In this document: in pieces, positions 9,350 through 41,300 of the stretch
Numbering within the stretch: the stretch's first letter is position 1
How the letters are laid out: the number at the start of each line of letters is the position of its first letter
IMG/VR virus record: IMGVR_UViG_3300050821_002518
Location: 1 to 56,312 of that record
From: a virus
Length of the DNA: 56,312 nucleotides
Direction: 5' to 3' (one strand)
Position numbers and translations under genes: made by a program
The notes under the pieces: generated by a model
What the model saw: only the letters and a program-made list of their open reading frames with translations
Told to the model about the DNA's origin: nothing
Database searches by the model: none

Positions 9350-9595
9350 TCAGCTCCTAAGTTTCGGGTTTTGTTGACTCACTGGGGGAGTGTACATGTT
9401 GGATGCGTGTAGGTCAACTTTGGCATCAGACTGTGTCGCGACCCACGCGCCATCGCAAAAGGCAGTCCCGAACTCACTGGCGATTCGAGCGGCACTCTTC
9501 CATCGCAGACTTCTGAACAGGCTTCGTGTGCCTGTTCCCGCGTGACATGCCAGCTGGCGCGCGTATTTTTCGGCCAACTCAGTCAGCTCACTCAT
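9350..9595 (-). CDS. hypothetical protein, 81 aa
   Basis: The start at 9595 (MSELTELAEKY) is chosen because it overlaps the upstream stop as ATGA; a longer reading would bury the neighbour. Contains RSLFRSLRWKSAARIASEFG and ends in a Pro/Ser tail. Not recognised. Confidence 0.55.
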   Translation of the reverse strand: MSELTELAEKYARQLACHAGTGTRSLFRSLRWKSAARIASEFGTAFCDGAWVATQSDAKVDLHASNMYTPPVSQQNPKLRS

Positions 9596-9753
9596 GATAT
9601 TTTCTCGCCTCCTCGATACATGAACCCGGCCGGCGACCCGCACGCCGGACACTTACAGAACGCCGCGCGTATCGGCGCGTCGATAGCGCCTTGCCATCCG
9701 CATAGATCTTCCAGGCAGATGGCGAACCCTCGCACTATGTGGCCGTCGCTCAT
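9592..9753 (-). CDS. 53-aa zinc-ribbon-like protein
   Basis: ATG at 9753, ATGA-coupled on both sides. Cys residues at 13 and 18 (CLEDLC) and at 33, 35 and 38 (CKCPAC) resemble a zinc ribbon, with CPACGSPAGF as the second knuckle. Small zinc-ribbon proteins of this kind are common in phage early regions. No specific partner can be named. Confidence 0.55.
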   Translation of the reverse strand: MSDGHIVRGFAICLEDLCGWQGAIDAPIRAAFCKCPACGSPAGFMYRGGEKIS

Positions 9754-9854
9754 CGCTCCTGCCCGTACAGCACCGCGACCTTGTGGCGCATCAGCGCGTA
9801 GTAGTCCTTGCACTCCATCCCGTGGCACAGGCTCAGATACGCAAGCTTCTTCAT
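9750..9854 (-). CDS. 34-aa micro-protein
   Basis: Starts right after the stop of the pentapeptide-repeat gene and ends in ATGA with the zinc-ribbon gene. Contains LCHGMECKDYYALM, with two Cys and a His. Its position in the coupled chain is the main support. Confidence 0.4.
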   Translation of the reverse strand: MKKLAYLSLCHGMECKDYYALMRHKVAVLYGQER

Positions 9855-10535
9855 TTAGTAATCCTTCGCCTCTTGCTCGGTGAGGAAGAAGTGTATACCA
9901 CCTGAGCACTCTACGCGAGGGTCTGGATCGAATTGATCCGCCACCACCTTCAATTTGGGCGCGTACTTTGTCACACCATCGTGTTTTGAGACTCCAGTAC
10001 CTGAGATAACGGTTACGTACGCGGCGCGACACTTTCGCGATCCGTACGCATTCACTCGTGCAGCTGCTTGTGGTATGCGAACCTTTGCGATGTTGCCGTT
10101 AGCTAGCTTCTTATAGCCAATGAGCACACCTTTAGCGACTATTACGAACGTCTCTAAAAATTTGGCGCCCTGCAAGTTGGCGCCCTGCAAGTTGGCGCCC
10201 TGCAAGTTGGCGCCCCGCAAGTTGGCGCCCTGCAAGTTGGTGCCCCGCAAGTTGGCGCCCCACAAGTTGGCGTCCTGCAAGTTGGCGCCCCGCAAGTCGG
10301 CGTCCTGCAAGTTGGCGCCCCACAAGTCGGCGCCCCGCAAGTTGGCGCCCCACAAGTCGGCGCCCCGCAAGTTGGCGCCCCGCAAGTTGGCGCCCCACAA
10401 GTTGGCGCCCTGCAAGTTGGCGCCCTGCAAGTTGGCGTCCTGCAAGTTGGCGTCCTGCAAGTTGGCGTCCTGCAAGTTGGCGCCCCGCAAGTTGGCTATC
10501 TCTTTCTCTGACCCATCTAAGAATTTAACTTTCAT
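9855..10535 (-). CDS. pentapeptide-repeat protein with DUF5758-like C-terminus
   Basis: 226 aa. The start at 10535 (MKVKFLDGSEKEI) has GGAG six bases upstream. Residues ~14-125 are about 22 pentapeptide repeats of the A(N/D)L(R/Q/W)G type, which fold as a right-handed quadrilateral beta helix in known members. The rest (FVIVAKGVLIGYKKL, KVRIPQAAARVNAYGSRKC, VSKHDG, CSGGIHFFLTEQEAK) matches the domain I know as DUF5758, usually paired with such repeats in phage proteins. The role is unknown; pentapeptide proteins can mimic DNA, but that is not shown here. Confidence 0.85.
   Translation of the reverse strand: MKVKFLDGSEKEIANLRGANLQDANLQDANLQDANLQGANLQGANLWGANLRGANLRGADLWGANLRGADLWGANLQDADLRGANLQDANLWGANLRGTNLQGANLRGANLQGANLQGANLQGAKFLETFVIVAKGVLIGYKKLANGNIAKVRIPQAAARVNAYGSRKCRAAYVTVISGTGVSKHDGVTKYAPKLKVVADQFDPDPRVECSGGIHFFLTEQEAKDY
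10162..10496. repeat. 15-bp coding tandem repeat (pentapeptide units)
   Basis: About 22 near-identical 15-bp units (ttggcg ccctgcaag and variants with ccc/tcc, cgc/cac/tgc changes) encode the pentapeptide beta helix of the gene at 9855-10535. The very low divergence between units suggests recent expansion. Confidence 0.95.
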
Positions 10536-14090: not shown

Positions 14091-14233
14091 ACGGGCGCCT
14101 TAAGATTCAGGTGTGGAGCGAGCGCCTACAGCAGTGGAAGACAGCATACTGCCTGATCACGATGCTGCACGAGAACTTGATTCTGATGAAGGCGTTCAGG
14201 TTCAAGGTCCGCGTAGGGAGTGAGTGCAAATGA
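14087..14233 (+). CDS. hypothetical protein, 48 aa
   Basis: Coupled by ATGA to both neighbours. Basic, with WSERLQQWKTAYCLITMLHE and AFRFKVRVGSECK. Not recognised. Confidence 0.45.
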   Translation: MNGRLKIQVWSERLQQWKTAYCLITMLHENLILMKAFRFKVRVGSECK

Positions 14234-14871
14234 AGTTCATCGGCCGACTGTTTCTTTGTGGTCTGATGGCGTTCGCGCTCCTGCGCGTTGCGGCCGCTGG
14301 CCCGTCGTCAGCGACAACCGCCCGGCTAGATATCGACGGCGCAACGTGCTCGGGCACTATCGTCGCACCGAGCGTGATACTCTCCGCGGCACACTGTTTC
14401 GAGGATGCTGACGTAGACCCTATCGATAAGTTTTTCGGTCACGTAGTACCTACACCGCCGCCTACCTCGATGCTGGTGGACGGCTACAAAGTATTCATTG
14501 AATCAATCGTCTTCGACGATGCCGACCACGCGCTGGTGAAGGTCATCTTCATATTCAAAGATCACGCGCAGCTCGGTAAGATGCCAGAGGTAGGTGCTAA
14601 GGTTCACTACTGGGGTAACCCGGCTAAAGTTAACGACGTCTACCGCGAAGGATACGTCACTAGCTATCACCATTCAGAGATGCTGATGGACGTCAACGGG
14701 TTCTTTGGTGACAGCGGCGCAGGAATATTCGACGAGTCCGGCAAGGTGGTAGGGGTAATGAGCTATATCAGCCCGCACCGGCACGACGGGCTGGTCTTTC
14801 GTTTGATGGGCGCGTACCCGCTAGAGTTTACGGCGCTACAGTACAGCATGATGGGCGTGACCGCGCCGTGA
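14230..14871 (+). CDS. secreted trypsin-like serine protease
   Basis: 213 aa. A signal peptide (KFIGRLFLCGLMAFALLRV, cleavage near AAA-G at 23-24) is followed by a chymotrypsin-fold protease. TCSGTIVAPSVILSAAHCF carries the catalytic His55, DDADHALVKV carries Asp99 and GFFGDSGAGIFD carries Ser162 in the GDSG motif. All three triad residues are present in the right order and spacing. It should act in the periplasm or outside the cell. ATGA-coupled to the gene before, so it belongs to the early plus operon rather than to the virion block. Possible roles are processing of an envelope protein, host exclusion or lysis; none is shown by the sequence. Confidence 0.85.
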   Translation: MKFIGRLFLCGLMAFALLRVAAAGPSSATTARLDIDGATCSGTIVAPSVILSAAHCFEDADVDPIDKFFGHVVPTPPPTSMLVDGYKVFIESIVFDDADHALVKVIFIFKDHAQLGKMPEVGAKVHYWGNPAKVNDVYREGYVTSYHHSEMLMDVNGFFGDSGAGIFDESGKVVGVMSYISPHRHDGLVFRLMGAYPLEFTALQYSMMGVTAP

Positions 14872-15127: not shown

Positions 15128-15307
15128 ATGGTTGATGTAGTGTCAGCGGCGAAAGCCGACGTCTCGGCAGCTAAAGCCGAAGTTGTGACGGTCAAGTCGA
15201 AGATCAGGGCTTGGATCGCAGCGCACGTACCGCACGCCATCTCAGCGGCTGCCGGCTTCGCTGTGAGCCACTTCAGTGTGATCTCGTACCTGGTGCACAA
15301 GCTGTGA
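15128..15307 (+). CDS. 59-aa Ala-rich protein with hydrophobic C-terminus
   Basis: AGAGGA lies eight bases before the ATG. The N-terminal amphipathic helix VVSAAKADVSAAKAEVVTVK contains a duplicated SAAKA(D/E)V unit. It is followed by a hydrophobic segment (AAAGFAVSHFSVISYLVHKL). May be membrane-associated. The 107-bp gap before it has a possible -10 (TATAAC at 15105-15110) but no good -35. Confidence 0.6.
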   Translation: MVDVVSAAKADVSAAKAEVVTVKSKIRAWIAAHVPHAISAAAGFAVSHFSVISYLVHKL

Positions 15308-15786
15308 CCTGGGGCAACAACGGTGCCGGCCCGACCGGCGTACAACCCTTCGCTCCAGGCGTAATCGGCCAGCCCCCTGGGCAGGGCGGAGCCACGCTCC
15401 CGGCGTTCTACAACGCGGGCTTCGAGTCTCTGATGGCCGCGGTCTCCCGCGGCGAGATATCGCTCAATCAGGTCTACGCGGTGGCGGGGCTTGGAGGTGT
15501 CGGCAACGCGAACGGTAACCCGACCCTGATGCAAGCCATCAGCCAGGGCGTGCCGCAGAACGCGACGAACGGTATCGGCGTAGTGTCCGGCCCGGGAGTT
15601 GGTGCCGGCAACGGCGGCGCGGCGGCCGCACAAATTTCTGGCACGGGCGGGCTCGGGTCCGCGGTGTCTGTTGGCTCGGGTAACTCCTCGACCAACTTCG
15701 GCGGCTCACAGCTCGCCGACCCCAAGCAGGTGGCGAACGCTCCGGCGGTCGCGCTCGCTTCTCCGATCCAGTACGGCGGCGCATAA
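15304..15786 (+). CDS. low-complexity protein, member 1 of a tandem two-motif family
   Basis: 160 aa; the GTG at 15304 overlaps the previous stop (GTGA). Gly/Ala/Asn/Pro-rich. Two short motifs stand out: SLMAAVSRGEISLNQ (~44-58) and TLMQAISQGVPQN (~77-89). Each reads as [ST]L(x)xA(x)S.G followed by Asn, and the same pattern appears twice in each of the next three proteins. The rest looks flexible. Position before the packaging genes suggests a virion or assembly role, but I do not recognise the family. Confidence 0.65.
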   Translation: MTWGNNGAGPTGVQPFAPGVIGQPPGQGGATLPAFYNAGFESLMAAVSRGEISLNQVYAVAGLGGVGNANGNPTLMQAISQGVPQNATNGIGVVSGPGVGAGNGGAAAAQISGTGGLGSAVSVGSGNSSTNFGGSQLADPKQVANAPAVALASPIQYGGA

Positions 15787-16313
15787 TGACAATTTACGGA
15801 CCCAACGGCGGCGTAGTAGTCGGGCAGCCGATCTCCCCCTTCTTCGGCGCACAGAACGGCGCGAACGCCGCGGCACCGATAATTCAGCAGCCAACGCAGG
15901 CGCCGGTTACCGGCGGGATGCAGGCGACCGGCGTACAGATGTCGGTCCTTGAGGCATGCTCTCGCGGCATCATCCCGCGCAACGCTCAGCTATCCACCGT
16001 CGCCGGCCAGTCCGTCAGCGCCGGCATCAGCGCCTCGCAAGGCGACAGCATGACGCTGGACGAGGCGATGTCGTCCGGTAACGGTGCGCAGGTCAGCCTG
16101 GGCGCCGCGGTGCCGCCGAACGCCGGCAACACGAGCTCCGTCACTACGGCCGGCATCAACAACCAGGTATTCGTCGACGGTATCGCGAACGCGAACGACG
16201 GGCTCTCGACCGGGCCGACCCCGTTCAACAACGAGTCAGCGGTTAGCGCCCCGACCCCCGCCTCGACAACGACCGCAAACGTTACGCTACTTGCGGGAGC
16301 CTTTCAAGGATGA
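15786..16313 (+). CDS. low-complexity protein, member 2 of the tandem family
   Basis: 175 aa; TAATG overlap with member 1. Starts MTIYG, like member 3. Motif copies are SVLEACSRGIIPRNAQ (~53-68) and TLDEAMSSGNGAQ (~89-101). The C-terminal third is Thr/Ser/Asn-rich. Function unknown. Confidence 0.65.
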   Translation: MTIYGPNGGVVVGQPISPFFGAQNGANAAAPIIQQPTQAPVTGGMQATGVQMSVLEACSRGIIPRNAQLSTVAGQSVSAGISASQGDSMTLDEAMSSGNGAQVSLGAAVPPNAGNTSSVTTAGINNQVFVDGIANANDGLSTGPTPFNNESAVSAPTPASTTTANVTLLAGAFQG

Positions 16314-16786
16314 CCATCTACGGCACACCGAGCGGTACCCCGCTCAACTACACCGGATTCCAGGGCACACAGCCCGGGAACCCCGTGCAAGCTACGCTCT
16401 CGCCGGTAATCCCCGGCGTCGGGCTCTTCCCTCCAAACTCGAACAACGCGAGCGGCGACAGCCTGCTCGCGTCCGCCTCGCGCGCAACGCTCCCGCTGAA
16501 CGCGCAAGGGTCCGGGTACGGCGCGACCTCGCAGGCTGGCGCCGGCCCCGGCGCGTCCGGTGGGCGCACGGTGGCGGAGGCTCTGTCCATCGGTGACCGG
16601 AACGGTTCCGGCACACAGGCGGGCGTAGACAGCTTGAACAGTGACCTGAACGGCGGCAACAGCCTAGGTGCCGGAGGAGCGAACCAGACGGAGGGGCCAA
16701 CCTCTGGCGAGGCGAGCCAGGCATCGACGCAGCAGCCGATGAACACGTTCACGCTGCAGGCTCCGGCTACGGTCTACGGGGGCTAA
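16310..16786 (+). CDS. low-complexity protein, member 3 of the tandem family
   Basis: 158 aa; ATGA overlap with member 2, same MTIYG start and a similar QG(T)QPGNPVQ opening. Motif copies are SLLASASRATLPLNAQ (~51-66) and TVAEALSIGDRNG (~87-99). Ends in a Gly/Thr/Gln-rich tail finishing ATVYGG, which resembles the QYGGA end of member 1. Confidence 0.65.
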   Translation: MTIYGTPSGTPLNYTGFQGTQPGNPVQATLSPVIPGVGLFPPNSNNASGDSLLASASRATLPLNAQGSGYGATSQAGAGPGASGGRTVAEALSIGDRNGSGTQAGVDSLNSDLNGGNSLGAGGANQTEGPTSGEASQASTQQPMNTFTLQAPATVYGG

Positions 16787-16789
16787 GCC

Positions 16790-17227
16790 ATGACGAATTT
16801 TCAAGCTTCACTCGCCGAGTACGAGACAAATTCCGGGTTCCCTGGCGCGGCCCCGGTACCCGGCGCCGGTAACCTGATGACAGGGAACCCGCAGGTGCCG
16901 AGCAACCTCCCGGACCAGAACCTGCCAGGCAACCAGAACACGGGCGCGCAGCTACTTGCCACACAGCTCTCGAACGGAAACATCTCGGCCAACTCTGTGC
17001 CGACGAATGTGCTCAGCGCTCCCGGTACCGACTCGCTGCTCGCGCAGATGTCGCGCGGTCAGGTGATATTGAAAGATTCAACTTACGGGATGGCGCAGTT
17101 CACTCCCGGCAACGCGGCCCCCGCGCCCGGCGCGCCGACGACGCAGCCGGTAACGGCCGGGGTCGCGAGCGCGGCGAGCGGGCTTACGTATCCTGCTCCA
17201 GGCTCGCAGAACTACACAGGCAACTGA
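16790..17227 (+). CDS. low-complexity protein, member 4 of the tandem family
   Basis: 145 aa. Motif copies are QLLATQLSNGNISANS (~54-69) and SLLAQMSRGQVILKDS (~83-98). The copy spacing (29 residues) is similar to that in the other members (33-36). Pro/Gly-rich flanks. Followed by a TGATG overlap with the next gene. Confidence 0.65.
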   Translation: MTNFQASLAEYETNSGFPGAAPVPGAGNLMTGNPQVPSNLPDQNLPGNQNTGAQLLATQLSNGNISANSVPTNVLSAPGTDSLLAQMSRGQVILKDSTYGMAQFTPGNAAPAPGAPTTQPVTAGVASAASGLTYPAPGSQNYTGN

Positions 17228-17538
17228 TGGCTGGCCGAGCGTCTGGGGGACAGCAGCTCACACCGAACCAGAACGTGTTCGCGCTCGTGCAGATGGGTGG
17301 CGACACCTGGGGCGCGAACGGTGGCGGCGCGGTTGCGGTAGGTGGCGGAGCTACGGACCAGACCGGATACGTCAAGCCGATAGCGATCACGCCATCGGAC
17401 TGTGAGACGCAGACGAACTATATACCGAGCATGCTGAGCGCGGTGCCGCGCACAGTGATCGGATTGGAAAGCAACGCCGCGCTCTCGGGACAGACACCGG
17501 ACAGCGCGCTAGCAGCCGGCGGCAGCAACGCCGGCTAG
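17227..17538 (+). CDS. low-complexity protein, possible fifth, degenerate member
   Basis: 103 aa. Gly/Ala/Asn-rich with NVFALVQMGGDTWGANGG near residue 17, which could be a worn copy of the tandem-family motif. It ends DSALAAGGSNAG. TGATG-coupled to member 4. Membership in the family is only suggested. Confidence 0.55.
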   Translation: MAGRASGGQQLTPNQNVFALVQMGGDTWGANGGGAVAVGGGATDQTGYVKPIAITPSDCETQTNYIPSMLSAVPRTVIGLESNAALSGQTPDSALAAGGSNAG

Positions 17539-17611: not shown

Positions 17612-18097
17612 ATGACAGCATTGGGCGTCTTTCGAGACGATTTTTATAACGCTGCGGCCGCGCTTACGGAAGCTCAATATACCGCCACCGCGCAAGCCTC
17701 CGGCACGTTGGCAGCGTCCGCCATCGCTGGCGCTCGCGAGTGTTTCGTTCTGTCCAGCGGCGCTACCGCGCTGACGACTGACTCCGCGATCAACATCATC
17801 GCGCAGGTTCAGAACGCGGTTGCTACCGCGTACAAGCAGGGTCTTGGAGCGTTCGCGGCCGGCGTCAACCCGCCGCCCGGCGTCCCGAACCTATTCAACG
17901 TTACCTGGACTCTTACGATTGTGAATACGAACGCGGGCACGCTGACCTTGTCGGCCGGCGCGGGCGTAACGCTCTCGGGCACGACCACGGTTACGACAGC
18001 GTCTATGCGTGAGTACCTGGTCACGATCACTTCCCCGACTACGGTCACCATCCAAGGAATGTTCTCCAGCGGTGCCGCTGGCGCATTCGTCGCTTAA
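17612..18097 (+). CDS. putative structural protein, 161 aa
   Basis: AGGAATTTTTC precedes the ATG. The N-terminal half is helical (RDDFYNAAAALTEAQYTATA). The C-terminal half is a run of Thr/Val strands (LTLSAGAGVTLSGTTTVTTA, then EYLVTITSPTTVTI), typical of phage capsid-decoration or fibre beta domains. No specific family recognised. Confidence 0.6.
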   Translation: MTALGVFRDDFYNAAAALTEAQYTATAQASGTLAASAIAGARECFVLSSGATALTTDSAINIIAQVQNAVATAYKQGLGAFAAGVNPPPGVPNLFNVTWTLTIVNTNAGTLTLSAGAGVTLSGTTTVTTASMREYLVTITSPTTVTIQGMFSSGAAGAFVA

Positions 18098-19778: not shown

Positions 19779-19807
19779 TTTAATTTCGTAAGGTGAGAGG
19801 TACGAAA

Positions 19808-20104
19808 ATGTCGAAGATAGATTTCAGCCAGCGGTTGCTGGACGATCTGATAGCGGTGGAGCTTCTGGATAAGGCTGAGGGAGTGATCAAGCTGCCGGAT
19901 TGGCAGCGGATCCTACGCGGCGAAGTCGTCGCGGTTGGCCCTGGACGGATGCTCCCGCTCGGCGAGCTTGCTCCTATGGAGTGTCGCGTTGGCGATATCG
20001 TCACCTTCGCGGCCACCGCCGGCATGGACACAGAATACGGTATCGGAAAGAAGATTCGGCTGATGCGAGACACTGACGTGGATTGCGTAGCGGTGTCCGC
20101 ATGA
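19808..20104 (+). CDS. GroES-like co-chaperonin, copy 1
   Basis: 98 aa, the length of bacterial GroES. Pattern matches are DDLIAVELLDKAEGVIKLPD (the Rx+V...E...GGI start region), RGEVVAVGPGRMLPLGELAP (the GxVVAVGxG motif), CRVGDIVTFAATAGMD (VGDxVxF) and IRLMRDTDVDCVA (the closing EEDILAV-like strand). GroES caps GroEL; phages encode their own to fold capsid proteins (T4 gp31 is the known case). AGGTGAGAGG precedes the ATG. Directly followed by a second GroES-like gene through a 4-base overlap. Confidence 0.8.
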   Translation: MSKIDFSQRLLDDLIAVELLDKAEGVIKLPDWQRILRGEVVAVGPGRMLPLGELAPMECRVGDIVTFAATAGMDTEYGIGKKIRLMRDTDVDCVAVSA

Positions 20105-20643
20105 TGCTCACAGAAGAGTTGGAAGAGGTCGGCAAGCGCACGCGCGTCCTGCGTGACCGCGTCCTTGTGAAGATTCTTCCATACGTTCACCCGACGCTGG
20201 CGACGCCAGGGATTGAAATAAACAAAGGTGTAGTCATTGCGGTCGGCTACGGCCGGCGCCAGCGTCGCAAGGTTGGATTCAAGCAAGAGATCAGCGACGG
20301 ACCGCCAGTGCTAGGTCCCGGCGGTAAAGTTATGCAGTTCGCGAAGAGCAAGCTCTCTGGCAAGACTCTGTATTTCGAAGACGGACCCGAGACTGGCGCG
20401 ATCATACCAATGCAAGTGAAGCCTGGCGATGTGGTGGAGTTCAGTTTCCGCAATATCACCATCGTGGACTTCGACCGCTTAGGGTTCCCTGGCATCGGCG
20501 ACCTAGCGTTCGTCTGGCAGAAGGCGATCTATTCCGTCGACCCGGATGAGTCGCTAAATGATTGCCTACTTTGGCAACAGAGCGCCGGCTACGACCGCAA
20601 AGGAAACTTTATGTCTGGGAGCGAGGATTGGCACCGCGCATGA
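20101..20643 (+). CDS. GroES-like protein, copy 2 (extended)
   Basis: 180 aa, nearly twice GroES length. RVLRDRVLVKILPYVHPTLA and GIEINKGVVIAVGYGRR match the start and the VVxVGxG motif. After an insertion of about 45 residues, QVKPGDVVEFSFRNITIVDF and VWQKAIYSVDPDE match the GDxVxF and closing strands. The tail (WQQSAGYDRKGNFMSGSEDW) is extra. It may act as a partner subunit in a mixed co-chaperonin ring. It overlaps the small terminase start by ATGA. Confidence 0.7.
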   Translation: MMLTEELEEVGKRTRVLRDRVLVKILPYVHPTLATPGIEINKGVVIAVGYGRRQRRKVGFKQEISDGPPVLGPGGKVMQFAKSKLSGKTLYFEDGPETGAIIPMQVKPGDVVEFSFRNITIVDFDRLGFPGIGDLAFVWQKAIYSVDPDESLNDCLLWQQSAGYDRKGNFMSGSEDWHRA

Positions 20644-21722
20644 TCGGATCCGCGCGCAACCCCGGCGACCCAAAGACCGCCTGGGGGAAGTGGCCGAAGA
20701 TTCGTCCCGAGACTGTCGCGCCGCTGCGTGATGGGCAGCCTGACCTATACAACTACGTTCCTACTCGCTTCGTCTCTAAAGACGAGGCGAAGGCGCGCGG
20801 CTGGAGGCTTTTTTGGTCGGGAGATGTATGCGTTACCGGGCACCGTGCCGCGCGCTACATCTCTAACCCCAGCGTCTGCACCGACTGTCAGCGCCTGGAG
20901 CGCGGGAAGGTGCCGGTGTACGGTAAGGGCGTGCCGGAGCTTGAGAAGGCGCGCGTACGCGCGTACACGCAGAAGAACACAGCCGCTATAGCCAGGCCGG
21001 CGCAGCCAAACGCTGCGGAAAAGAAATTTCTTGAGAAGTACGCGGAGCTGAAAGACTTCACGCTCGCAGCGGAGTCGCTCGGGCGAACGGACTCAGAGTT
21101 TTTGGCGATCCTTAGCTGGAACGAGCTGTTCCGCGATTCGGTGAACCGTCTCGAAGAGAGTATGGGAATCGCGCGCACCCAGCAGGTTACGGACGATTTC
21201 GATTGGACTGAAGACAAACAACGAGTTTTCCTGATCACATACGCAAATACCGCAGACGTGAAGCAGGCGCTACGCTTCGTTGGTGCCACTAACGTGCAGT
21301 TTCATAAAGAATTGACGTCAAATTCGGATTTTCAGAGAGGGTTTGACGATGCGCACCAGATCGCGCGGGCTGTATTCGATCACGCGGCCTCAGCGGCAGC
21401 CACGAAAGGCGACTCGCGCATGCTCGGGCGCATCGCCGCGAACCTTTTCCCTGAAAAGTTCGGTGAGAACCTGAAGATGGATCTCAACGTGAAGCAAAAC
21501 CTAACGTTGGACCAAGCACATGCGCAACTTGCCACGATCCTATCAAGATTTAATCGACAGGGTCTACTCTCCGCTGCCGAAACAGATGACGAGCCTGCTG
21601 TCGAAGCAGAATATCGGGTCGTTGAGTCTGGCGGAGACGACGAAGTTGCTCCAGATCCTGAACCAGCGGGCGCTGATACAGGATCAGACCCAAATAGTGA
21701 CCTGGTTTCAGGATCCGACTGA
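20640..21722 (+). CDS. terminase small subunit-like protein with N-terminal zinc motif
   Basis: 360 aa, ATGA-coupled to GroES copy 2. The N-terminal third has CVTGHRAARY, then CTDC (~residues 64-83), the CxxGHxxxR...CxxC arrangement also seen in the HNH nuclease at 29962. The centre (EKKFLEKYAELKDFTLAAES, RVFLITYANTADVKQALRFV) has two helical HTH-like repeats. IAANLFPEKFGENLKMDLNV, then DQAHAQLATILSRF near 300, resembles the end of small terminases that precede TerL. The acidic tail is disordered. Assigned from the combination of sequence and position before the ATPase gene. Confidence 0.65.
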   Translation: MIGSARNPGDPKTAWGKWPKIRPETVAPLRDGQPDLYNYVPTRFVSKDEAKARGWRLFWSGDVCVTGHRAARYISNPSVCTDCQRLERGKVPVYGKGVPELEKARVRAYTQKNTAAIARPAQPNAAEKKFLEKYAELKDFTLAAESLGRTDSEFLAILSWNELFRDSVNRLEESMGIARTQQVTDDFDWTEDKQRVFLITYANTADVKQALRFVGATNVQFHKELTSNSDFQRGFDDAHQIARAVFDHAASAAATKGDSRMLGRIAANLFPEKFGENLKMDLNVKQNLTLDQAHAQLATILSRFNRQGLLSAAETDDEPAVEAEYRVVESGGDDEVAPDPEPAGADTGSDPNSDLVSGSD

Positions 21723-22425
21723 CCACCCGTCATTAAAAAACTGCCCTCTCGGTCGGGCGCACTACCCGAAGCAAATGAAGTTCTTTGCTTCGGAGGCGAC
21801 AGACGACGAGATCGCGCTATTCGGTGGAAACCGGACAGGAAAGACGCATTGCGGGTGTTTCGCGGACGCTTTGCACCTCACTGGACTCTATCCAGCATGG
21901 TGGCCCGGACGAAGGTACGACAGACCCATCGATATGTGGCTGGCGACGGACACCGCGAAGAACACGCGCGACATTTTGCAAGAAAAGATGTGCGGCAAGC
22001 CAGGCGTGGAGTCGGCGTACGGCACCGGCATGATCCCGGGCGATCTTTTGGTGCGGCGGACAGTGAAGCACGGTCTCGCCGACGCGTTTGAGTCGGTTTT
22101 CGTGCGGCACGTGTCCGGCGGAATCTCTACGCTACAGTTTAAGTCGTACGATCAGGGCCGCGAAGCCTTCCAAGGCACGCGCCAGGATCGTATCCATCTT
22201 GACGAAGAGCCGAAGCTTGAGATTTACGCCGAGTGCGGCATGCGCCTCATGAGCACCGTGCCAGGCGAAAAGAACGGCACGCTGGTACTGACAGAGACCC
22301 CGCTGCTGGGTGTCTCTGACCTGATGATCACCTTCATGCCAGAGCTATCTCCTGAGCCTGACGCTATGCCGACCGAGCAGTGGGAGCTGGAGGAAGATGA
22401 AGACGTCATTGAGGAGTCAACTTGA
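21520..22425 (+). CDS. terminase large subunit, ATPase half
   Basis: 301 aa from ATG 21520; ATG 21586 is an alternative. Both lie inside the small-subunit gene and lack a clear ribosome site. SLSLAETTKLLQILNQ and HYPKQMKFFASEATDDE precede Walker A GGNRTGKT (102-109). Walker B is RIHLDEEP (D228, E229) and the coupling motif is LTETPLLG (257-264). The reading ends at an acidic linker ELEEDEDVIEEST just where the nuclease domain should start. In ordinary TerL the two domains are one chain. The next gene supplies the nuclease part in another frame. Confidence 0.85.
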   Translation: MRNLPRSYQDLIDRVYSPLPKQMTSLLSKQNIGSLSLAETTKLLQILNQRALIQDQTQIVTWFQDPTDHPSLKNCPLGRAHYPKQMKFFASEATDDEIALFGGNRTGKTHCGCFADALHLTGLYPAWWPGRRYDRPIDMWLATDTAKNTRDILQEKMCGKPGVESAYGTGMIPGDLLVRRTVKHGLADAFESVFVRHVSGGISTLQFKSYDQGREAFQGTRQDRIHLDEEPKLEIYAECGMRLMSTVPGEKNGTLVLTETPLLGVSDLMITFMPELSPEPDAMPTEQWELEEDEDVIEEST

Positions 22426-23198
22426 GCAAGAGCGCGGTATTCCTCGATATGGATGATGTCCCTCACCTCAGCGACTCTGAGAAGAAGAAGATCTTGGCGA
22501 GCGTGCCGGCGTGGCAGCTACAGGCTCGTAAGTCAGGTATACCCGGGCACGGTGTCGGCGCGATCTACCCGATCCCCGAGAACGTGATGTCGATACAACC
22601 GTTCGATATCCCGGCCCACTGGCCGCGCTCGTATGGGATGGACCCGGGCTGGAACTGCACCGCGGTGGTGTGGTTCGCGTGGGATATTGATAACGGTTTC
22701 AAAGATTCGCAGGGCAACCAGCGGTACCCGGCGGTGGCGTACGATGAATACTATCGCGGTCAGGCCGACCCCGCGGTGCACGTCGCCGCGATCAATCGTC
22801 GTGGCAAGTGGATACAGGGCGTGATCGACCCGGCCGCGCAGAAGGCGCGTGGCGTAGACGGCGAGCTGTTGATTGATACGTACTGTAACCTCGGGCTGAA
22901 GGTAACGAAGGCCGACAACACTGTCGTGACCGGGCTTATACAGACCTGGGACATGCTATCGACGCAGCAGTTGAGAATTTTCAGCACGCTGACGAACTGG
23001 TTCAAAGAGGTGCGCCTCTACCGCCGCGACGAGAAGGGGAATATTATCAAGAAGAACGACCACCTCATGGACGCCTCACGCTACAACGTGATGAGCGGCT
23101 TCGATGTGGCGAAGGCGCCGCCCGCGAGTGATGGCGGCGTGCCCTGGTTCTCCTGGGCTCCTGAGATGGCTACTCAGGGCGGAGTCTGGAGTGGGTGA
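22422..23198 (+). CDS. terminase large subunit, nuclease half (separate gene, TTG start)
   Basis: 258 aa. The TTG at 22422 has GAGGAG five bases upstream and overlaps the ATPase stop as TTGA. It opens with the linker region VPHLSDSEKKKILASVPAWQ and GVGAIYPIPE. The RNase H-like nuclease follows: GMDPGWNCTAVVW (D74), AYDEYY (E109), GVIDPAA (D136) and KNDHLMDASRYN (D213, D217), the usual acidic cluster. The strong ribosome site suggests it is translated as its own polypeptide. The frame is open only from 22413, so a frameshift fusion would have to occur within about 12 bases, and no slippery heptamer is visible there. Confidence 0.85.
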   Translation: MSKSAVFLDMDDVPHLSDSEKKKILASVPAWQLQARKSGIPGHGVGAIYPIPENVMSIQPFDIPAHWPRSYGMDPGWNCTAVVWFAWDIDNGFKDSQGNQRYPAVAYDEYYRGQADPAVHVAAINRRGKWIQGVIDPAAQKARGVDGELLIDTYCNLGLKVTKADNTVVTGLIQTWDMLSTQQLRIFSTLTNWFKEVRLYRRDEKGNIIKKNDHLMDASRYNVMSGFDVAKAPPASDGGVPWFSWAPEMATQGGVWSG

Positions 23199-34440: not shown

Positions 34441-36369
34441 TTGGCAGGCGGCACCCAGTTCGGCAACAGTGACACGGCGGTCGGACTACAGGGTGGGATG
34501 TACAACCGGCAGAGCACTGGGTATACAGGACAGTCAGCGCAGGCCGGTGGCGTCGTTACTGATCCTAAGGCGCTGGCTGGATACAATAAAGCTTTCAGCA
34601 CCATGTTCGCGCCGCTGCTCTCCAAGGGATACACGCAGCAGCAGATAGTCTCGTATCTTCAGACGCTTCCCGGGCCGCAGGGCGCGAAGATTCAGGAGCA
34701 GCTGGACAACGCAACGAACAGTATCCTGAACCCTGACACAACGCTCGACAAGGTCATGCAGGGGCTGTCGTTGGCGGGTAGCGCTATCGGCGTCGGGTTG
34801 CTTACCGGGGGCGCGATAGCTCCAGCTCTCTCTGCCGCGGGCGCCGACGCTGCCGGATCTATCGGAGCGCTAGCTGGCAACGCTGCAGCCGGCGCGTTGG
34901 GTGGCGGTGCGATATCCGGCCTCGAAGGTCAGAACATAGGTAAAGGCGCGCTGCTGGGCGCTGTCGGCAGCACTCTAGGGTCAGCTGCAGCGCCAGCGGC
35001 GGATTCATTATCGAGCGCTACCGGGCTGCCAGGTTTCGCCAGCACCGGGCTGGTTAAGGCCGGCATCGGCGCCGCTACCTCGGCCGCGTCTGGCGCGAAC
35101 CCGCTGATCGGCGCGGCCGCAGCCGGCGCCGGCAGCTTGGCCGGAAGTGCGGCGAACAACTTGGGTGCCGGAGCCGCATCGAATTTTATCGGTAATCAGG
35201 TGGGTACTTTCGCTGGCGGTATGGTTGGCGGTAATCCGAACCCTAACCAGAACGGAAACATGCCGCCATCAGGTGGCGGATCAAACTATATCGGCGCCGC
35301 TGGCGTCGGAGCGCTTGGTGCGAGCGCACTCTCTGGTAGCGTAGGTGGACAGGGGAACATCGGCAATATGGCTTTAACAAATACGGGCTCTGGGCTGAGT
35401 ACAGACTCATCTCTTGCATCGACCGTCACGGGCGCACTGCCCGGGATACTACAGGGCGCTGCGGGCGTCTACGGATCGCAGAACGCTGCCCAGGCTCAGA
35501 CGAGCGCGGACGCGAACGCTATCGGCACGCAGCAGTCGACGCTCGGCAACATCAACAATATCTGGAGCACGCAGCAGCAGCTCGGTCAGGGCGCACAGAC
35601 AGCGCTCGGGTCCGCGCTCGGCACGAACGGTCAGCCCGCTAACTACTCCGGCTTCCAGAACATGCCGGGCTACCAATTCGCCGTACAGCAGGGTACGCAA
35701 GCCATCCAGCGCCAGGCCGCTGCGATGGGTAGCGCCTACACGCCGAACACTGCAGCCGCTGTAGGCCAGTACGTGACCGGCACCGCCGCGCAGGACTACA
35801 ACACATACATCAGCCAGCTGATGGGTGCGGCCGGGCTCGGCAGCACCGCGAATCAGGGCCTACAGACAGGTAACCAGACAGTGGGCAATAACATCAGCAC
35901 CCTACAGCAGAATCAGGGGCAAGCGCAGGCGTCAGGCGTGTCCGGCGCTGCTAATGCCATAGGCGGAATATTCGGCGTCAACGGTGCTGGTACCGGCCTG
36001 ATCGGTGCAGCCGGCCGCGGGCTTACTGGCGGATCTGGCAGCGGTGGAGTAAACTCCGGCGCCCCAGTGTCAGGCAATAATCCAATGAACTATGGCGGAC
36101 AGAACCCTAACGGTACCGGCATGTCTACGGGAACTGCGAGCGATCCGTACGGCGCGAATGCGGCACAGTACAACGCCACCAACGGACCAACCGCAGCCGA
36201 TCTCTCAGGCAGCACGAACGGAGTTGGAAATATAGACCCAGGGTCTATAGACACGAGCGGGTTCGATCCTAATAATATAAATTTCAGTACCGACTTGAGC
36301 AACTTCGATCCAAGTAATCTCAATTTCAGTTCTGATACGAGTGATGCAACTAGCTTCTTGGGGTTTTAA
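34441..36369 (+). CDS. DNA ejection/internal virion protein, Gly/Ala-rich
   Basis: 642 aa, TTG start two bases after the holin-like stop. Long Gly/Ala/Asn-rich region with hydrophobic helices (SLAGSAIGVGLLTGGAIAPA). A conserved block follows: QTSADANAIGTQQSTLGNIN, PGYQFAVQQGTQAIQRQAAA, MGSAYTPNTAAAVGQYVTGT, AAQDYNTYISQLMGAAGLGS. This block occurs in phage DNA-transfer proteins comparable in role to P22 gp7. The C-terminal tail has NFDPSNLNFSSDTSD-like repeats. Expected to leave the capsid with the DNA. Confidence 0.75.
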   Translation: MAGGTQFGNSDTAVGLQGGMYNRQSTGYTGQSAQAGGVVTDPKALAGYNKAFSTMFAPLLSKGYTQQQIVSYLQTLPGPQGAKIQEQLDNATNSILNPDTTLDKVMQGLSLAGSAIGVGLLTGGAIAPALSAAGADAAGSIGALAGNAAAGALGGGAISGLEGQNIGKGALLGAVGSTLGSAAAPAADSLSSATGLPGFASTGLVKAGIGAATSAASGANPLIGAAAAGAGSLAGSAANNLGAGAASNFIGNQVGTFAGGMVGGNPNPNQNGNMPPSGGGSNYIGAAGVGALGASALSGSVGGQGNIGNMALTNTGSGLSTDSSLASTVTGALPGILQGAAGVYGSQNAAQAQTSADANAIGTQQSTLGNINNIWSTQQQLGQGAQTALGSALGTNGQPANYSGFQNMPGYQFAVQQGTQAIQRQAAAMGSAYTPNTAAAVGQYVTGTAAQDYNTYISQLMGAAGLGSTANQGLQTGNQTVGNNISTLQQNQGQAQASGVSGAANAIGGIFGVNGAGTGLIGAAGRGLTGGSGSGGVNSGAPVSGNNPMNYGGQNPNGTGMSTGTASDPYGANAAQYNATNGPTAADLSGSTNGVGNIDPGSIDTSGFDPNNINFSTDLSNFDPSNLNFSSDTSDATSFLGF

Positions 36370-38301
36370 ATGAGCGACATACCTGACAACGGCTCATTCA
36401 ATCTAGGTCTCGCGAATATCGCGTCGCAGAACTATGGCCCGACGGCAACCGCCAACCAGAGCCTGACCGGTGCACAGACACAGAATGTGCAGCAGCAAAC
36501 CCAAGCCAACGCTATGCAGAATCAACTGATGCGCGCTCGTATGCCGCTCATTCTCTCACGGCTGCATGACATGTCGGTCGGGATGGGTGACCAGTCAGGC
36601 GTAGACACCTCCGGCGCGGGTAGCGGTAGCGAAGCTCCTGCGAGCGTATCCGACAAACTGCAGAAGGCGCAAGATAACTCTGGCGCCGCTGATTCGTCCA
36701 TCTTGAACCCCGGCGCTATCCAGAAAGCTCTGCGTGACAAATACTTCGTGCCCGCGGTCCCGCCCGGCGCTATGAAGGCCATCACCAACGCGTATGCGGT
36801 GGATCCTACGGATCAGTACGGCATGGGGCCGAAGAGTGTGATGGGGCAGATTGATATGTGGAAGACACAGAAGATCACACAGAGCCAGCAGGGCGCGCGA
36901 GATGACTTCGATGCGCTGCACGCGGTGACGGACGCGCCCGACGGCCAGGCGATGAACGTGCTAGAGCGCTCGCACCCGGAGACCTACGCCGCGATCAAGC
37001 AGAAGTTCAAGAACACCCCGAACGAAGATAGAGATGAAGAGGACGAGGCTCGCCTCTTCGCCGCGCATGCCGCCGGGGCCGTGCACCAATACACCGGCCG
37101 CGGGGCGAAGCCCGGCGCTGATGGCGTTTACCGCGACGAAGAGACTGGGATCACGATCCCCGGCGTTGAGCAGGTCGGTCTCTCGCGCGAGCAATACATC
37201 AAGCTGGCGCACGAAGCAAACACCGCATCGGTCGACGTGCCGGACGGTCAGGGCGGATCAACGAAGATGACACCATGGAAGGCCGCGCAAGTTGCGGGCG
37301 CGAAGAACATGAACGGCCCAGAGGACTGGATCCAGGTCCGCGCGTCGCAGATGGGGTTGCCCGGTGCGGCCGCGACGCTGCCGCCAAACAGCGCGCAGAG
37401 GCGCGAGTCGACGGCAGTTACTAAGGCAGCGAACGCAACCGCGCAGCAACAGCAGGCCGCTGCCGGCGCGCCCGCCAACGGAGACGCCGCGCCGGTCGCC
37501 GGGATCGGCACCGCACGCAACGCGCAGGGGCAACCAGATCAGAAGCTTACCGCCGCGCTACAGGACCGTACGTTTGCGTTCAAGCCCACCTCGGGGCAGT
37601 TGGACGCGAACGGAAATCCGCAGACGTACATACCCGGCCCGAACAAGACGCCCCCGAAGTGGTACAGCGACGCGCTGGACAAGCAGCAGACCTCGCGCCA
37701 GGGGCTAGCCAAGGACTCGAACGAAGGTATCAAGGCTGCCTCCGCCTCGCTCACGATGTACCAGGCCGCGCAGGATATCCTCGCCAAGGGCCGGTACGAC
37801 GGCGGCGCGTGGGACGCGGAGCTGGCTCAGAAGGCCGGGAAGTATCTGCCGGTCGGCTGGCAGAACACCGCCAAGAGCGGCGACTACCAGGAGCTGGCTA
37901 AGATGCTCGGCACCGCCGCGCTGCAGTCTGGTAAGGGAATCTTCGCGAAGATGACACAAATGGAAGCGAAGATGATGACGAAGGAGCTGAGCCCAGCCCC
38001 CAGCATGCAGCCGGAAGCGATGCGCGATATGATCCAGAAGGGTATGAACATCGCACAGTACAGCATCGACTCTGCGAAGCGGGTGCCGCGGTATCTGCAG
38101 TCTGGGATGGATGCGGACCAGTTTCCGACCTGGAACCAGACGCACTTCCCGCAGGAGACCGAGACGTCGAAGGTGAAGCCGCCAGGCGTTACTGCCGCGG
38201 CCGGTGCACCAAAATATTCTGATGAGAAGGTTAGAGCGTATATGCAGAAGCATGGACTGACAGACGAGCAAGCTACACGTAAAGCGCTGGGCATGCCATA
38301 G
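36370..38301 (+). CDS. putative DNA ejection protein 2
   Basis: 643 aa, starting at the base after the previous stop. Gln/Asn-rich start (QNVQQQTQANAMQNQLM), helical middle, then DGVYRDEETGITIPGVEQVG and a helical C-terminal third (LTMYQAAQDILAKGRYDGGA, GMNIAQYSIDSAKRVPRYL). It ends in a small helical motif DEKVRAYMQKHGLTDEQAT, like a C-terminal three-helix unit. Order and size fit a gp20- or gp16-type ejection protein. Confidence 0.65.
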   Translation: MSDIPDNGSFNLGLANIASQNYGPTATANQSLTGAQTQNVQQQTQANAMQNQLMRARMPLILSRLHDMSVGMGDQSGVDTSGAGSGSEAPASVSDKLQKAQDNSGAADSSILNPGAIQKALRDKYFVPAVPPGAMKAITNAYAVDPTDQYGMGPKSVMGQIDMWKTQKITQSQQGARDDFDALHAVTDAPDGQAMNVLERSHPETYAAIKQKFKNTPNEDRDEEDEARLFAAHAAGAVHQYTGRGAKPGADGVYRDEETGITIPGVEQVGLSREQYIKLAHEANTASVDVPDGQGGSTKMTPWKAAQVAGAKNMNGPEDWIQVRASQMGLPGAAATLPPNSAQRRESTAVTKAANATAQQQQAAAGAPANGDAAPVAGIGTARNAQGQPDQKLTAALQDRTFAFKPTSGQLDANGNPQTYIPGPNKTPPKWYSDALDKQQTSRQGLAKDSNEGIKAASASLTMYQAAQDILAKGRYDGGAWDAELAQKAGKYLPVGWQNTAKSGDYQELAKMLGTAALQSGKGIFAKMTQMEAKMMTKELSPAPSMQPEAMRDMIQKGMNIAQYSIDSAKRVPRYLQSGMDADQFPTWNQTHFPQETETSKVKPPGVTAAAGAPKYSDEKVRAYMQKHGLTDEQATRKALGMP

Positions 38302-41300
38302 TGGCCGATAACGTGGCCGATATGGCCGATATCAGTGACATGCCCGACCCGACTACCATCGGGCTGAAGCAGGCGGCTCCTGCGGACGATATGCCGGCGC
38401 CGGAGGACCTGTACCGTAAGTACCGCGGTCTACGGCCGACCGACGCTGTCGCGCCTGGCGAGGTGGCGGAGTTCATGAAGAATCCACCGGACCCGAACTG
38501 GAAGCCGCCGACGTTGCATAGTGTCGCGTCCCAGCTCACCGGCCTGCCGCGCGCCGCCGCCGGCTACGCGTTGGCGGTGCCGGCGGGCGTCGCGAGCATC
38601 GCCGGCCAGCTGACCGGCGCGGGCGGCGCCGCCCTGGACCCAACCAACGCCGCGGACTACCTGGAGCAAGGTCGTGAGCGCGGCCGTAAGTGGGCGGAGG
38701 GCGTCAACAATCTGACGAACTACGTCCCCGCCACGAAGCGCGGCGCAGAATTTGCCAACGACCTGACCGGCTTACCGGCGAACCTGATCAAAGAGACGGC
38801 CGGCGCCGGATTGAAGGCCGCGCTGCCGGACAACGCCTACCAGGCGGTAAGCGACGTGGCCCAGGACATAGGCACCGACCTGCCGGCGCTTGGCGCCCCG
38901 GCCGCGGTGCGCGCCACCGCGAAGGGCGTCTCTAAGGCGGCCGGTGCTGCCAAGAACTTCGCCGCCAGCGAGGCGGCTACGACCACCGCGCCCGGCGATA
39001 TGCCGGCGGCACCTATTGTTCCGCCGGTCGGGAAGCCGATCACGGGCGACACTTTACGCGCCCAGCCGAACCCGATCCCGGCGCCAGAGGGTACCGCGCA
39101 CCGCGTTGCCACCGAAGAGGGTCGCTCGCCGGCCGCGCCTCCCAGCCGGCCGCCGGCAGAACCACAGCCGGCCACCCCGGCGCTGCCTGAGGCGGATACC
39201 GCCCCGCAGAATATGTCCCTGTCTCCCGAGCAGCGCGCCGTCGTGCGCGAGGGTGTCGCGGCGCGGCGCGCGGCGGCAGAATCCCAGCGCGGCTCCGTAC
39301 GGCTCTTCAACTCCCCGGCCGACGAAGGTCCCCAAGAAACTCCGGCCCCTGAGCAGCAGAGCGAGCGCGCCGCGCACCTCGACGCTATAGACAAGCTCTC
39401 TGGTGGCGGTCTACCGACGCGCCGCGCCTCAGCTCTTACCGGCGACTATAACGCAACCGGCGACGACTTCCAAATGAAGGAGGTCGGCAGCCAGCCGATG
39501 CGCCAGCAGATCGCGAGCGAGAACGCCGCGATGCACAAGGCGACCGAGAACGTGCACGACAGCGTAGGCTCGGAGTTTGAGAACAGCGTAGACAGCCAGA
39601 CCCTGGGAGACCGCGGGCGCGTAACGCGCGGCGCGATCCAAGGCATCGAAAAATGGTTCGGCGACGCGACCGACCAGATGTACAACGCGGCGCGCACCGC
39701 GAACGAGGGGCGGCCGATCCCTAAGCTGCAGCGCGTCAGCGACTACCTGAACGATGACTCGAACTTTACGAACGATGCCGAGATCGGCCTGCAGCGCGCC
39801 GCGAAGCAGCGCCTTGAGCGTTTGTGGACGACCGGCGACCCGGACAAGGGCGTGCCGCCCGGCAGCGTCAACGCAGCGGAAAAATTCCGCGAGTTCCTGA
39901 ACGACAAGGGTAAGAACCCGAGCGCGATGGGCGTGGCGAGCGAGATGAAGGGGCACCTCGACATGGACGTAGCCGACCACGGCGGCCCGGGCCTGTTCGA
40001 GACCGCCCGCGCCCTGCGCCGGCACAGTTACCAGATGCTGGAGGAGCCGCAGGGTATCAAGAAGCTGCTGGCGCCGGCCGACAGCCAGGGTATCAATCAC
40101 GCGATCCCTGAACACAAGGTGATGGACTATATCGCCGACCTGCCGCGCGATCAGCACGAGCATGTCCTGAACGTGCTGCGGGCCGGTGCGCACCTGGGCA
40201 GCGGCGAGCTGGCGGATGCGAGCGCCGGGGCGCTACGAGAGATTCAGGCGCACGTCATCAGCCGTATGCACGCGGCGGCGACGAACGCGGACGGCAGCTG
40301 GAACGCCCGCAAGTTCTACAACGCCGCGGACCGCTACGCGCGTAACGCGTCGGATACATTTAGAGACCGCCCAGACGTTCTCCAGAATTTAAAGACGATC
40401 AACGACGCAGGCAACACGCTGCACATGGACAAGCACTACCCCGGCGCTGGCGCGCAGATCGAGCGCACCGGTATGGCGGGTCGCGTGGTGCAGGGAGTTG
40501 GCGGCATAGCTGCGAGTATCGCGCACGAGATACCGATGGGTGGGCGCATGGTCGGCCGCGCCATCGAGCGCGGCGTAGAGAAAGCTGGCGGACAGATGAG
40601 CGAGGCGGCCCGCGACAAGGCGGTGCAGTCTCGGCTTGTGGATCGTACCGGCAAGCAGCGCGGCTCCGTGCAGCTATTCAACGACAACAAGCTGAACCGA
40701 CAGAACGAGGAGCGGACTACCTTCCACGGGAAGGATATCAATCCACGGAACGAGCGCAACGAGCGTGTAGCGAACCAGCAGATGGGTGGACGTCGGCCGC
40801 TCACCGACGAGCAGAACGATGTCTTGGGCCGGCTCATGGGCGGTAGGCAGCGGGGCGCGGTCGGTGACCTTAGCCAGCGCGGCGCTGTCAGTCATGAGGT
40901 AGAGGATGCGCCTAGCCTAGGGCTACGATATCACAGCTATAGCACGCCGCACGGTGGTGGTTTGGATGTCAGAGAGGTGCCTGGGCTAGACGTAAGGAAA
41001 GCGTACCGTGCTACACAGCCAACGGATCAGCGCGGCAAAGGCTGGGGTACCCGTACACTACAGCGCGCGGTAGATGACGCGCACGCTGCCGGGCAGAAAT
41101 TTCAAAGTGACAGCCAAGTATCAGACAGCCAGGCAGGGGCCTACAGCAACCTGAAGAAGCTGGGCTACGACGTCAAGATGAAGCCAAACGAACACGTCCA
41201 GGGAGAATACAAAGCGCATGGCGACCACGTCTTCGAGGTGCGGCCAGGTAAACCTAAAGGGTACGAGGCGCCGGACGAACATCCTCGCATCGATAAGTTT

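What the first reader, a model, noticed from the sequence alone, without database searches (positions are those of the whole stretch)
15304..17227. Tandem family of four low-complexity proteins, each with two copies of one motif
Four adjacent coupled genes share little sequence overall, but each has two copies of a ~13-residue motif of the type [ST](L/V)xxA(x)SxG...N, about 30-36 residues apart (SLMAAVSRGEISLN, SVLEACSRGIIPRN, SLLASASRATLPLN, SLLAQMSRGQVILK and four weaker partners). Flanks are Gly/Ala/Pro/Asn-rich. I know no family with this layout. It looks like an old duplication series with a conserved interaction helix repeated eight times, perhaps a virion-associated or condensate-forming set.
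Basis: partly seen in the sequence, partly recalled or inferred. Interest (0 to 1): 0.75.

Follow-up and report, generated by a model that had tools for sequence, protein, structure and literature searches.

The report
Five-gene motif-pair operon in podoviruses
A P22-like virus carries a row of five small, floppy, related proteins, each with one or two copies of a short helix motif and four of them with the same three-residue ending; the fifth is fused to sugar- or wall-binding domains in related viruses, so the set probably decorates the virus particle and helps it stick to its host.

Summary
Genes A-D (15304-17227) form a coupled operon under purifying selection (dN/dS about 0.1-0.3), with relatives in 31 other contigs. 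The strong motif copy ranks first in each of A-D when scored with a profile from the other genes. The weak copy ranks first in A, C and D, but only 8th of 135 in B. A, B and C are homologous beyond the motifs.

(1) Gene E (17227-17538) belongs to the set: its motif copy ranks first of 90. (2) A-D share a C-terminal tag, [YF]-x-G-(x)-COOH: all A, B and C orthologues, 21 of 31 D, against 2 of 206 other ORFs. (3) In relatives E is fused to LamG+PASTA, PASTA, BNR-like or Gly-rich domains, and the E-F gap can hold tailspike-like genes.

Neighbour F folds like a capsid spike (weak match). No PHROG or NCBIfam family matches A-E, no catalogued phage carries B or D, and the only Pfam match is a sub-threshold plectin repeat. 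AlphaFold gives B as disordered, with short helices only at the two motifs.

Best reading: a virion-surface set docked by paired helices, with E carrying the adhesin. Virion location and docking partner are inferred. Condensates are unsupported.

The parts
15304..15786 (+). gene A (160 aa, GTG start overlapping the upstream stop); two motif copies and C-terminal YGGA
   Evidence: dN/dS about 0.15-0.22
15427..15468 (+). A motif copy 1 (strong) SLMAAVSRGEISLN
   Evidence: rank 1 of 147 positions with a profile from the other genes
15523..15564 (+). A motif copy 2 (weak) TLMQAISQGVPQNA
   Evidence: rank 1 of 120
15772..15783 (+). A C-terminal tag YGGA
   Evidence: 25/25 A sequences end [YF]xG(x)
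15786..16313 (+). gene B (175 aa); most conserved stretch GMQATGVQMSVLEACSRGIIP
   Evidence: AF2
15942..15983 (+). B motif copy 1 (strong) SVLEACSRGIIPRN; sub-threshold plectin-repeat similarity
16053..16094 (+). B motif copy 2 (weak) TLDEAMSSGNGAQV
   Evidence: second best in leave-one-out scan, p 0.0012; rank 8/135 with strong-only profile
16302..16310 (+). B C-terminal tag FQG
   Evidence: 26/26 B sequences
16310..16786 (+). gene C (158 aa), homologous to B over about 100 columns
16460..16501 (+). C motif copy 1 (strong) SLLASASRATLPLN
   Evidence: rank 1
16568..16609 (+). C motif copy 2 (weak) TVAEALSIGDRNGS
   Evidence: rank 1 of 118; shuffle p 0.063
16775..16783 (+). C C-terminal tag YGG
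   Evidence: 30/30 C sequences
16790..17227 (+). gene D (145 aa), the most widely kept of A-D
16952..16993 (+). D motif copy 1 (weak) LLATQLSNGNISAN
   Evidence: rank 1 of 105
17033..17074 (+). D motif copy 2 (strong) SLLAQMSRGQVILK
   Evidence: rank 1; top conservation window of D
17213..17224 (+). D C-terminal tag YTGN
   Evidence: 21/31 D sequences have Y or F; the others have L or H at that place
17227..17538 (+). gene E (103 aa), fifth member; in relatives fused to LamG/PASTA/BNR-like/Gly-rich domains
17248..17325 (+). E conserved segment GQxLTPNxNVxA...GGDxWGANGG
   Evidence: 12 invariant columns in alignment A5; GGDxWGA present in the fused forms
17377..17418 (+). E possible weak motif copy PIAITPSDCETQTN
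   Evidence: second best position in E; clearer in some relatives
17452..17493 (+). E motif copy TVIGLESNAALSGQ
   Evidence: rank 1 of 90 with a profile from A-D strong copies
17612..18097 (+). gene F, conserved neighbour (context, not a member); predicted fold like a capsid spike / fibre head domain
   Evidence: alignment A6, AF2 pLDDT 78, Foldseek

Best explanation
A-E are a paralogous, translationally coupled set of virion-surface accessory proteins of a clade of P22-like podoviruses. Each is a mostly disordered, nearly uncharged Gly/Ala/Asn/Ser/Pro-rich chain with two copies (in E one clear copy) of a short capped helix, [ST]-[LVM]-x-x-A-x-S-[R/x]-G-x-[ILV], about 27-37 residues apart. A-D also end in an aromatic-x-Gly C-terminal tag. 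Proposed mechanism: the two helices act as a bivalent peg that docks onto two equivalent sites of a repeated shell component (coat or spike subunits), and the C-terminal tag adds a third contact. A-D thus form a flexible, uncharged mat on the particle. E, anchored by the same module, carries the exchangeable host-binding domain (LamG lectin, PASTA, BNR-like, Gly-rich; in the window only a short form). Shown here: paralogy of A, B and C, the motif pairs, the C-terminal tag, coupling, selection, conserved order, the domain fusions on E and the capsid-spike-like predicted fold of neighbour F. Inferred: virion location, which component the helices bind, and the division of labour between A-D and E.
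For: Gene order A-B-C-D-E upstream of the terminase gene is kept in relatives, and all ten TerL relatives with about 9 kb or more upstream carry members of the set. dN/dS is about 0.1-0.3. Motif statistics. Among 3,868 ORFs in 20 contigs, every hit of 17.5 bits or more lies in A-E. Homology of A, B and C with column-shuffled nulls. C-terminal tag. E is fused to LamG+PASTA (L004, L025), PASTA (L003), and BNR-like (L051) or Gly-rich (L033) domains, the last two below the Pfam cut-offs. A pectate-lyase-like tailspike gene follows E in L007. F resembles Pa223 capsid spike 9ny6 (E 1.5e-3, prob 1.00) and viral fibre/collagen-associated domains. AF2 of B: mean pLDDT 39, helices only at residues 54-59 and 91-96, i.e. 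at the two motifs. A-D have 70-75% GAPNSTQ and only 2-3 Lys+Arg per protein.
Against: No virion proteomics exists for these uncultured phages. No homologue of B or D was found in 50,697 phage records, so no characterised relative fixes the location. AF2 for B is low confidence, so helix formation is only suggested. The Pa223 match for F is weak (TM 0.36/0.22). In B and C the motifs are not better conserved than their flanks. A and most of B are missing in L058, B is missing in L093/L094 and A-C are missing in L080, so not every member is needed. E lacks the C-terminal tag.
Confidence: 0.45

Rival explanations
1. A-E are tail or adsorption-apparatus adaptors: they sit at the tail and tether tailspikes or E-borne adhesins to it, rather than covering the capsid.
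For: Tailspike-like genes follow E in L007, L016, L058 and L061; E carries lectin/PASTA domains.
Against: The tailspike-like genes have their own shared N-terminal segment (xTPANSGxGDSxKxAFDKxNxNF) without the motif. Neighbour F looks like a capsid spike. Five low-complexity paralogues are more than a tail adaptor would normally need (inference).
Confidence: 0.22
2. A-D are internal head proteins, packaged by binding coat or scaffold through the helices and lost or ejected on maturation.
For: Small, flexible, coupled proteins with a repeated helix and a shared C-terminal tag could carry cargo signals.
Against: E, sharing the motif, carries extracellular-type binding domains in relatives. Ejection-type proteins are encoded elsewhere, 34441-42107.
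Confidence: 0.12
3. Non-structural set: intracellular low-complexity proteins forming a condensate or acting as assembly chaperones.
For: Low complexity and repeated motifs; GroES-like genes lie nearby.
Against: Adhesion-domain fusions on E, position in the structural region, near absence of charged residues; no known condensate signature was found.
Confidence: 0.11
4. Low-complexity sequence with chance motif matches, no real family.
For: Ser/Ala/Gly-rich patterns are easy to find by eye in such chains.
Against: Leave-one-gene-out profiles, shuffles and column-shuffled profile comparisons reject it; motifs and C-terminal tags are kept across orthologues 35-85% identical.
Confidence: 0.01

Closest known systems
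Phage decoration/adhesion proteins: T5 and DT57C pb10, T4 Hoc (PMC7602432, PMC10713586)
   Same: E of relatives pairs a small conserved segment with an exchangeable host- or glycan-binding domain, as pb10 pairs an N-terminal hexon-binding segment with Ig-like domains. Works-like comparison.
   Different: No sequence relationship was found; E's partner domains are LamG/PASTA/BNR-like, and there are four further paralogues without any binding domain.
PRD1 P30 (proline-rich, mostly disordered, extended capsid protein; PMC7602432)
   Same: Mostly disordered extended chain that orders on a capsid. Works-like comparison only.
   Different: P30 lies under the capsid above a membrane and is a single protein; no motif pairs or paralogue series are known to me for it.
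Plakin/plectin repeat (PF00681)
   Same: B 47-65 aligns to profile positions 15-33; 11 of 14 B orthologues match (best E 0.004).
   Different: 17.4 bits against a cut-off of 20.5; only 19 of 39 positions; A, C, D and E do not match; 13 of 14 control genomes also give sub-threshold hits.
Pseudomonas phage Pa223 capsid spike (9ny6)
   Same: Neighbour F is predicted to have a related fold (Foldseek prob 1.00, E 1.5e-3).
   Different: It concerns F, not A-E; TM-scores are low (0.36/0.22).

Membership tests
Phage capsid decoration/adhesion protein (functional class) | present on the mature virion | not testable with these tools
   uncultured virus; no proteomics held
Phage capsid decoration/adhesion protein (functional class) | binds the capsid lattice through a defined segment | not testable with these tools
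   candidate segment is the SxG helix pair; no complex prediction was possible
Phage capsid decoration/adhesion protein (functional class) | surface- or glycan-binding domain, at least in family members | tested here: met
   LamG and PASTA above Pfam cut-offs in E of L004, PASTA in L003, LamG in L025; not in the window's own short E
Phage capsid decoration/adhesion protein (functional class) | dispensable or variable between related phages | tested here: inconclusive
   L058 lacks A and most of B, L093 lacks B, L080 lacks A-C, but D is present wherever the region is covered
Plakin/plectin repeat PF00681 | score above the gathering cut-off (20.5 bits) | tested here: not met
   17.4 bits for window B; no contig over the cut-off
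Plakin/plectin repeat PF00681 | full repeat of about 39 positions | tested here: not met
   only positions 15-33 matched
Any PHROG, NCBIfam or solved-structure family | profile match for A-D | tested here: not met
   no PHROG or NCBIfam match; PDB matches only at E >= 0.04 to unrelated chains

The most novel reading that the evidence does not exclude
A new architectural principle for a tailed-phage particle: a paralogous series of disordered proteins, each a bivalent linear-motif peg with a C-terminal aromatic-x-Gly tag, that covers the shell and serves as a common attachment system on which exchangeable adhesin domains (through E) are swapped.
Probability: 0.2. Interest if true: 0.75.

Novelty: new variant of a known kind. 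Interest (0 to 1): 0.5.

Why it matters
The set is conserved, under selection, and unknown to every family library tried here. It pairs a paralogous series of disordered proteins with a swappable adhesin, which would be an unusual way to build phage surface diversity. The nine or ten motif copies plus a C-terminal tag make clear, mutable predictions about what holds the set on the particle. The E segment (GGDxWGANGG) also marks host-binding domains in otherwise unannotated environmental phages.

Tried and rejected
Chance low-complexity matches: rejected by leave-one-out, shuffle and column-shuffle controls.

Membership of the plectin repeat family: below cut-off and partial.

Trypsin-like protease 14224-14871 as a maturation protease for the set: full-length relatives only in L010 and L012 among the loci searched, though several of those loci are too short upstream to show it.

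Search for catalogued relatives: none in 50,697 phage records for B, D, F or the 19326 protein; no solved structure for A-D.

Host: the only cellular-genome hit is a contig in a Solirubrobacterales MAG, which may be a mis-binned virus, so no host is claimed.

Relatives of the small extra protein L061:7207-7428: none found in IMG/VR.

Full report
WHAT THE WINDOW IS. The 56-kb record is a virus contig. Its portal, scaffold, coat and head-closure proteins match P22-like podovirus families and distant Vibrio, Shewanella, Rhodoferax and environmental podophages at about 25-35% identity. No phage record has similar DNA around the finding.

THE OBSERVATION. Genes A-D are present as described, and their start and stop codons overlap or nearly touch. 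Fifteen IMG/VR relatives turned up with gene B alone, and further scans with alignments of A, B, C, D and E brought the total to 30 IMG/VR contigs plus one contig in a Solirubrobacterales MAG. Gene order A-B-C-D-E is kept in nearly all of them where covered. Pairwise dS is 0.6-1.6 against dN 0.09-0.31, so these are real, selected proteins.

IS THE MOTIF MORE THAN CHANCE? A profile built from the other genes finds the strong copy first in every gene, and the second-best hit is the claimed weak copy; shuffle p-values for the weak copies are 0.023, 0.0012, 0.063 and 0.0006 for A-D. A stricter test used only the strong copies of the other genes and averaged over orthologues: the weak copy ranks 1/120 (A), 8/135 (B), 1/118 (C), 1/105 (D), and a copy in E ranks 1/90. 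A scan of 3,868 ORFs from 20 contigs gave hits of at least 17.5 bits only in A-E. The next one, at 17.4 bits, led to an unannotated 74-aa ORF just upstream of A in L061 with two motif-like stretches and the ending YGGY. L080 has a 68-aa two-copy protein between D and E. So the two-motif unit also exists nearly alone. Caveat: motif columns exceed their flanks in conservation in A and D but not in B and C.

PARALOGY. Profile-profile comparison gives A-B E 1e-4, A-C 1.7e-6 and B-C 9e-8 (single-template E-values). None of 60 column-shuffled controls reached any of these scores; A-D, A-E and C-D also exceeded all controls, with weaker scores, while B-D, B-E, C-E and D-E did not clearly exceed them. 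The duplication reading is well supported for A, B and C, and supported at motif level for D and E.

A SECOND SHARED FEATURE. All 25 A, 26 B and 30 C sequences, and 21 of 31 D sequences, end in [YF]-x-G-(x)-COOH; the remaining D sequences have Leu or His in the aromatic place. Only 2 of the other 206 ORFs of at least 100 aa in the window do so. Some contigs are near-identical (for example L013 and L014), so these counts are not fully independent.

GENE E AND ITS FUSIONS. E has a conserved segment with twelve invariant columns, including GDxWGANGG. In L004 and L025 it is fused to LamG and PASTA, and in L003 to PASTA. LamG is above the Pfam cut-off in both L004 and L025; PASTA is above it in L004 and L003 and just below it in L025. 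L051 carries BNR-like and L033 Gly-rich sequence, both below cut-off; L080 and L097 carry long unmatched extensions. Between E and F some relatives have a tailspike-like gene, for example a pectate-lyase-like protein in L007. Those genes share their own N-terminal segment rather than the motif.

NEIGHBOUR F. F was found and aligned in 19 loci, is predicted with pLDDT 78, and its best PDB match is the capsid spike of Pseudomonas phage Pa223 (E 1.5e-3, probability 1.00, but TM-scores only 0.36/0.22). Viral-library matches include side-tail-fibre and collagen-repeat proteins. This points to a surface-protein neighbourhood but is weak on its own.

STRUCTURE OF THE SET. AF2 for B is mostly unstructured (mean pLDDT 39), with helices of four or more residues only at 54-59 and 91-96, inside the two motif copies. 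A-D have 70-75% Gly/Ala/Pro/Asn/Ser/Thr/Gln and two or three basic residues each.

HOW IT MAY WORK. The simplest scheme consistent with these facts is a bivalent peg: two short capped helices on a flexible chain dock to two equal sites on a repeated surface, with the C-terminal tag as a third contact, and E uses the same motif to hold an adhesin. The steps 'on the virion', 'which partner' and 'what A-D do without a binding domain' are inferred. Tail-adaptor and internal-protein readings remain open.

NATURAL VARIATION. L058 has lost A and most of B, L093/L094 lack B and L080 lacks A-C. D is present wherever the region is covered, and E in all such contigs except L050, where a 397-aa protein of unknown kind follows D. 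All ten TerL relatives with about 9 kb or more upstream hold both D and E.

COMPARISON WITH THE KNOWN. No PHROG or NCBIfam family matches A-E, and no solved structure matches A-D. In Pfam the only match is a sub-threshold, partial plectin repeat in B. Functionally the E arrangement recalls pb10/Hoc-type decoration proteins (PMC7602432, PMC10713586), but no sequence link was found.

Noticed in passing
window 21520-23198: The terminase large subunit is encoded as two overlapping ORFs, an ATPase-like part (21520-22425) and a nuclease-like part (22422-23198); L080 shows the same split (9453-10319 and 10289 onward)..
   Followed up: partly
window 19793-20643: Two tandem GroES-like genes: 19793-20104 matches phrog_3188, and 20083-20643 looks GroES-like by eye; the pair is also in L080 (7766-8625)..
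   Followed up: partly
window 14224-14871: Trypsin-like serine protease (Pfam Trypsin, E 1e-10) with a signal-peptide-like start just upstream of the set; full-length relatives found only in L010 and L012..
   Followed up: partly
L061:7207-7428: Unannotated 74-aa protein with two motif-like stretches (LTVIEAVNRGILP, NTLHALLSSGAV) and ending YGGY, next to A: a possible sixth member..
   Followed up: partly
L080:2915-3118: 68-aa protein with two motif copies (NVLAKLSTGELAANSS, STLLSSMSKGT) between D and E in a contig that lacks A-C..
   Followed up: partly
L013:939-1688: A 250-aa gene without Pfam match inserted between B and C (also in L014)..
   Followed up: no
window 38301-42107: Large (1268 aa) protein downstream of a DNA-ejection-like gene carries a ParB-like nuclease match near its C-terminus..
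   Followed up: no
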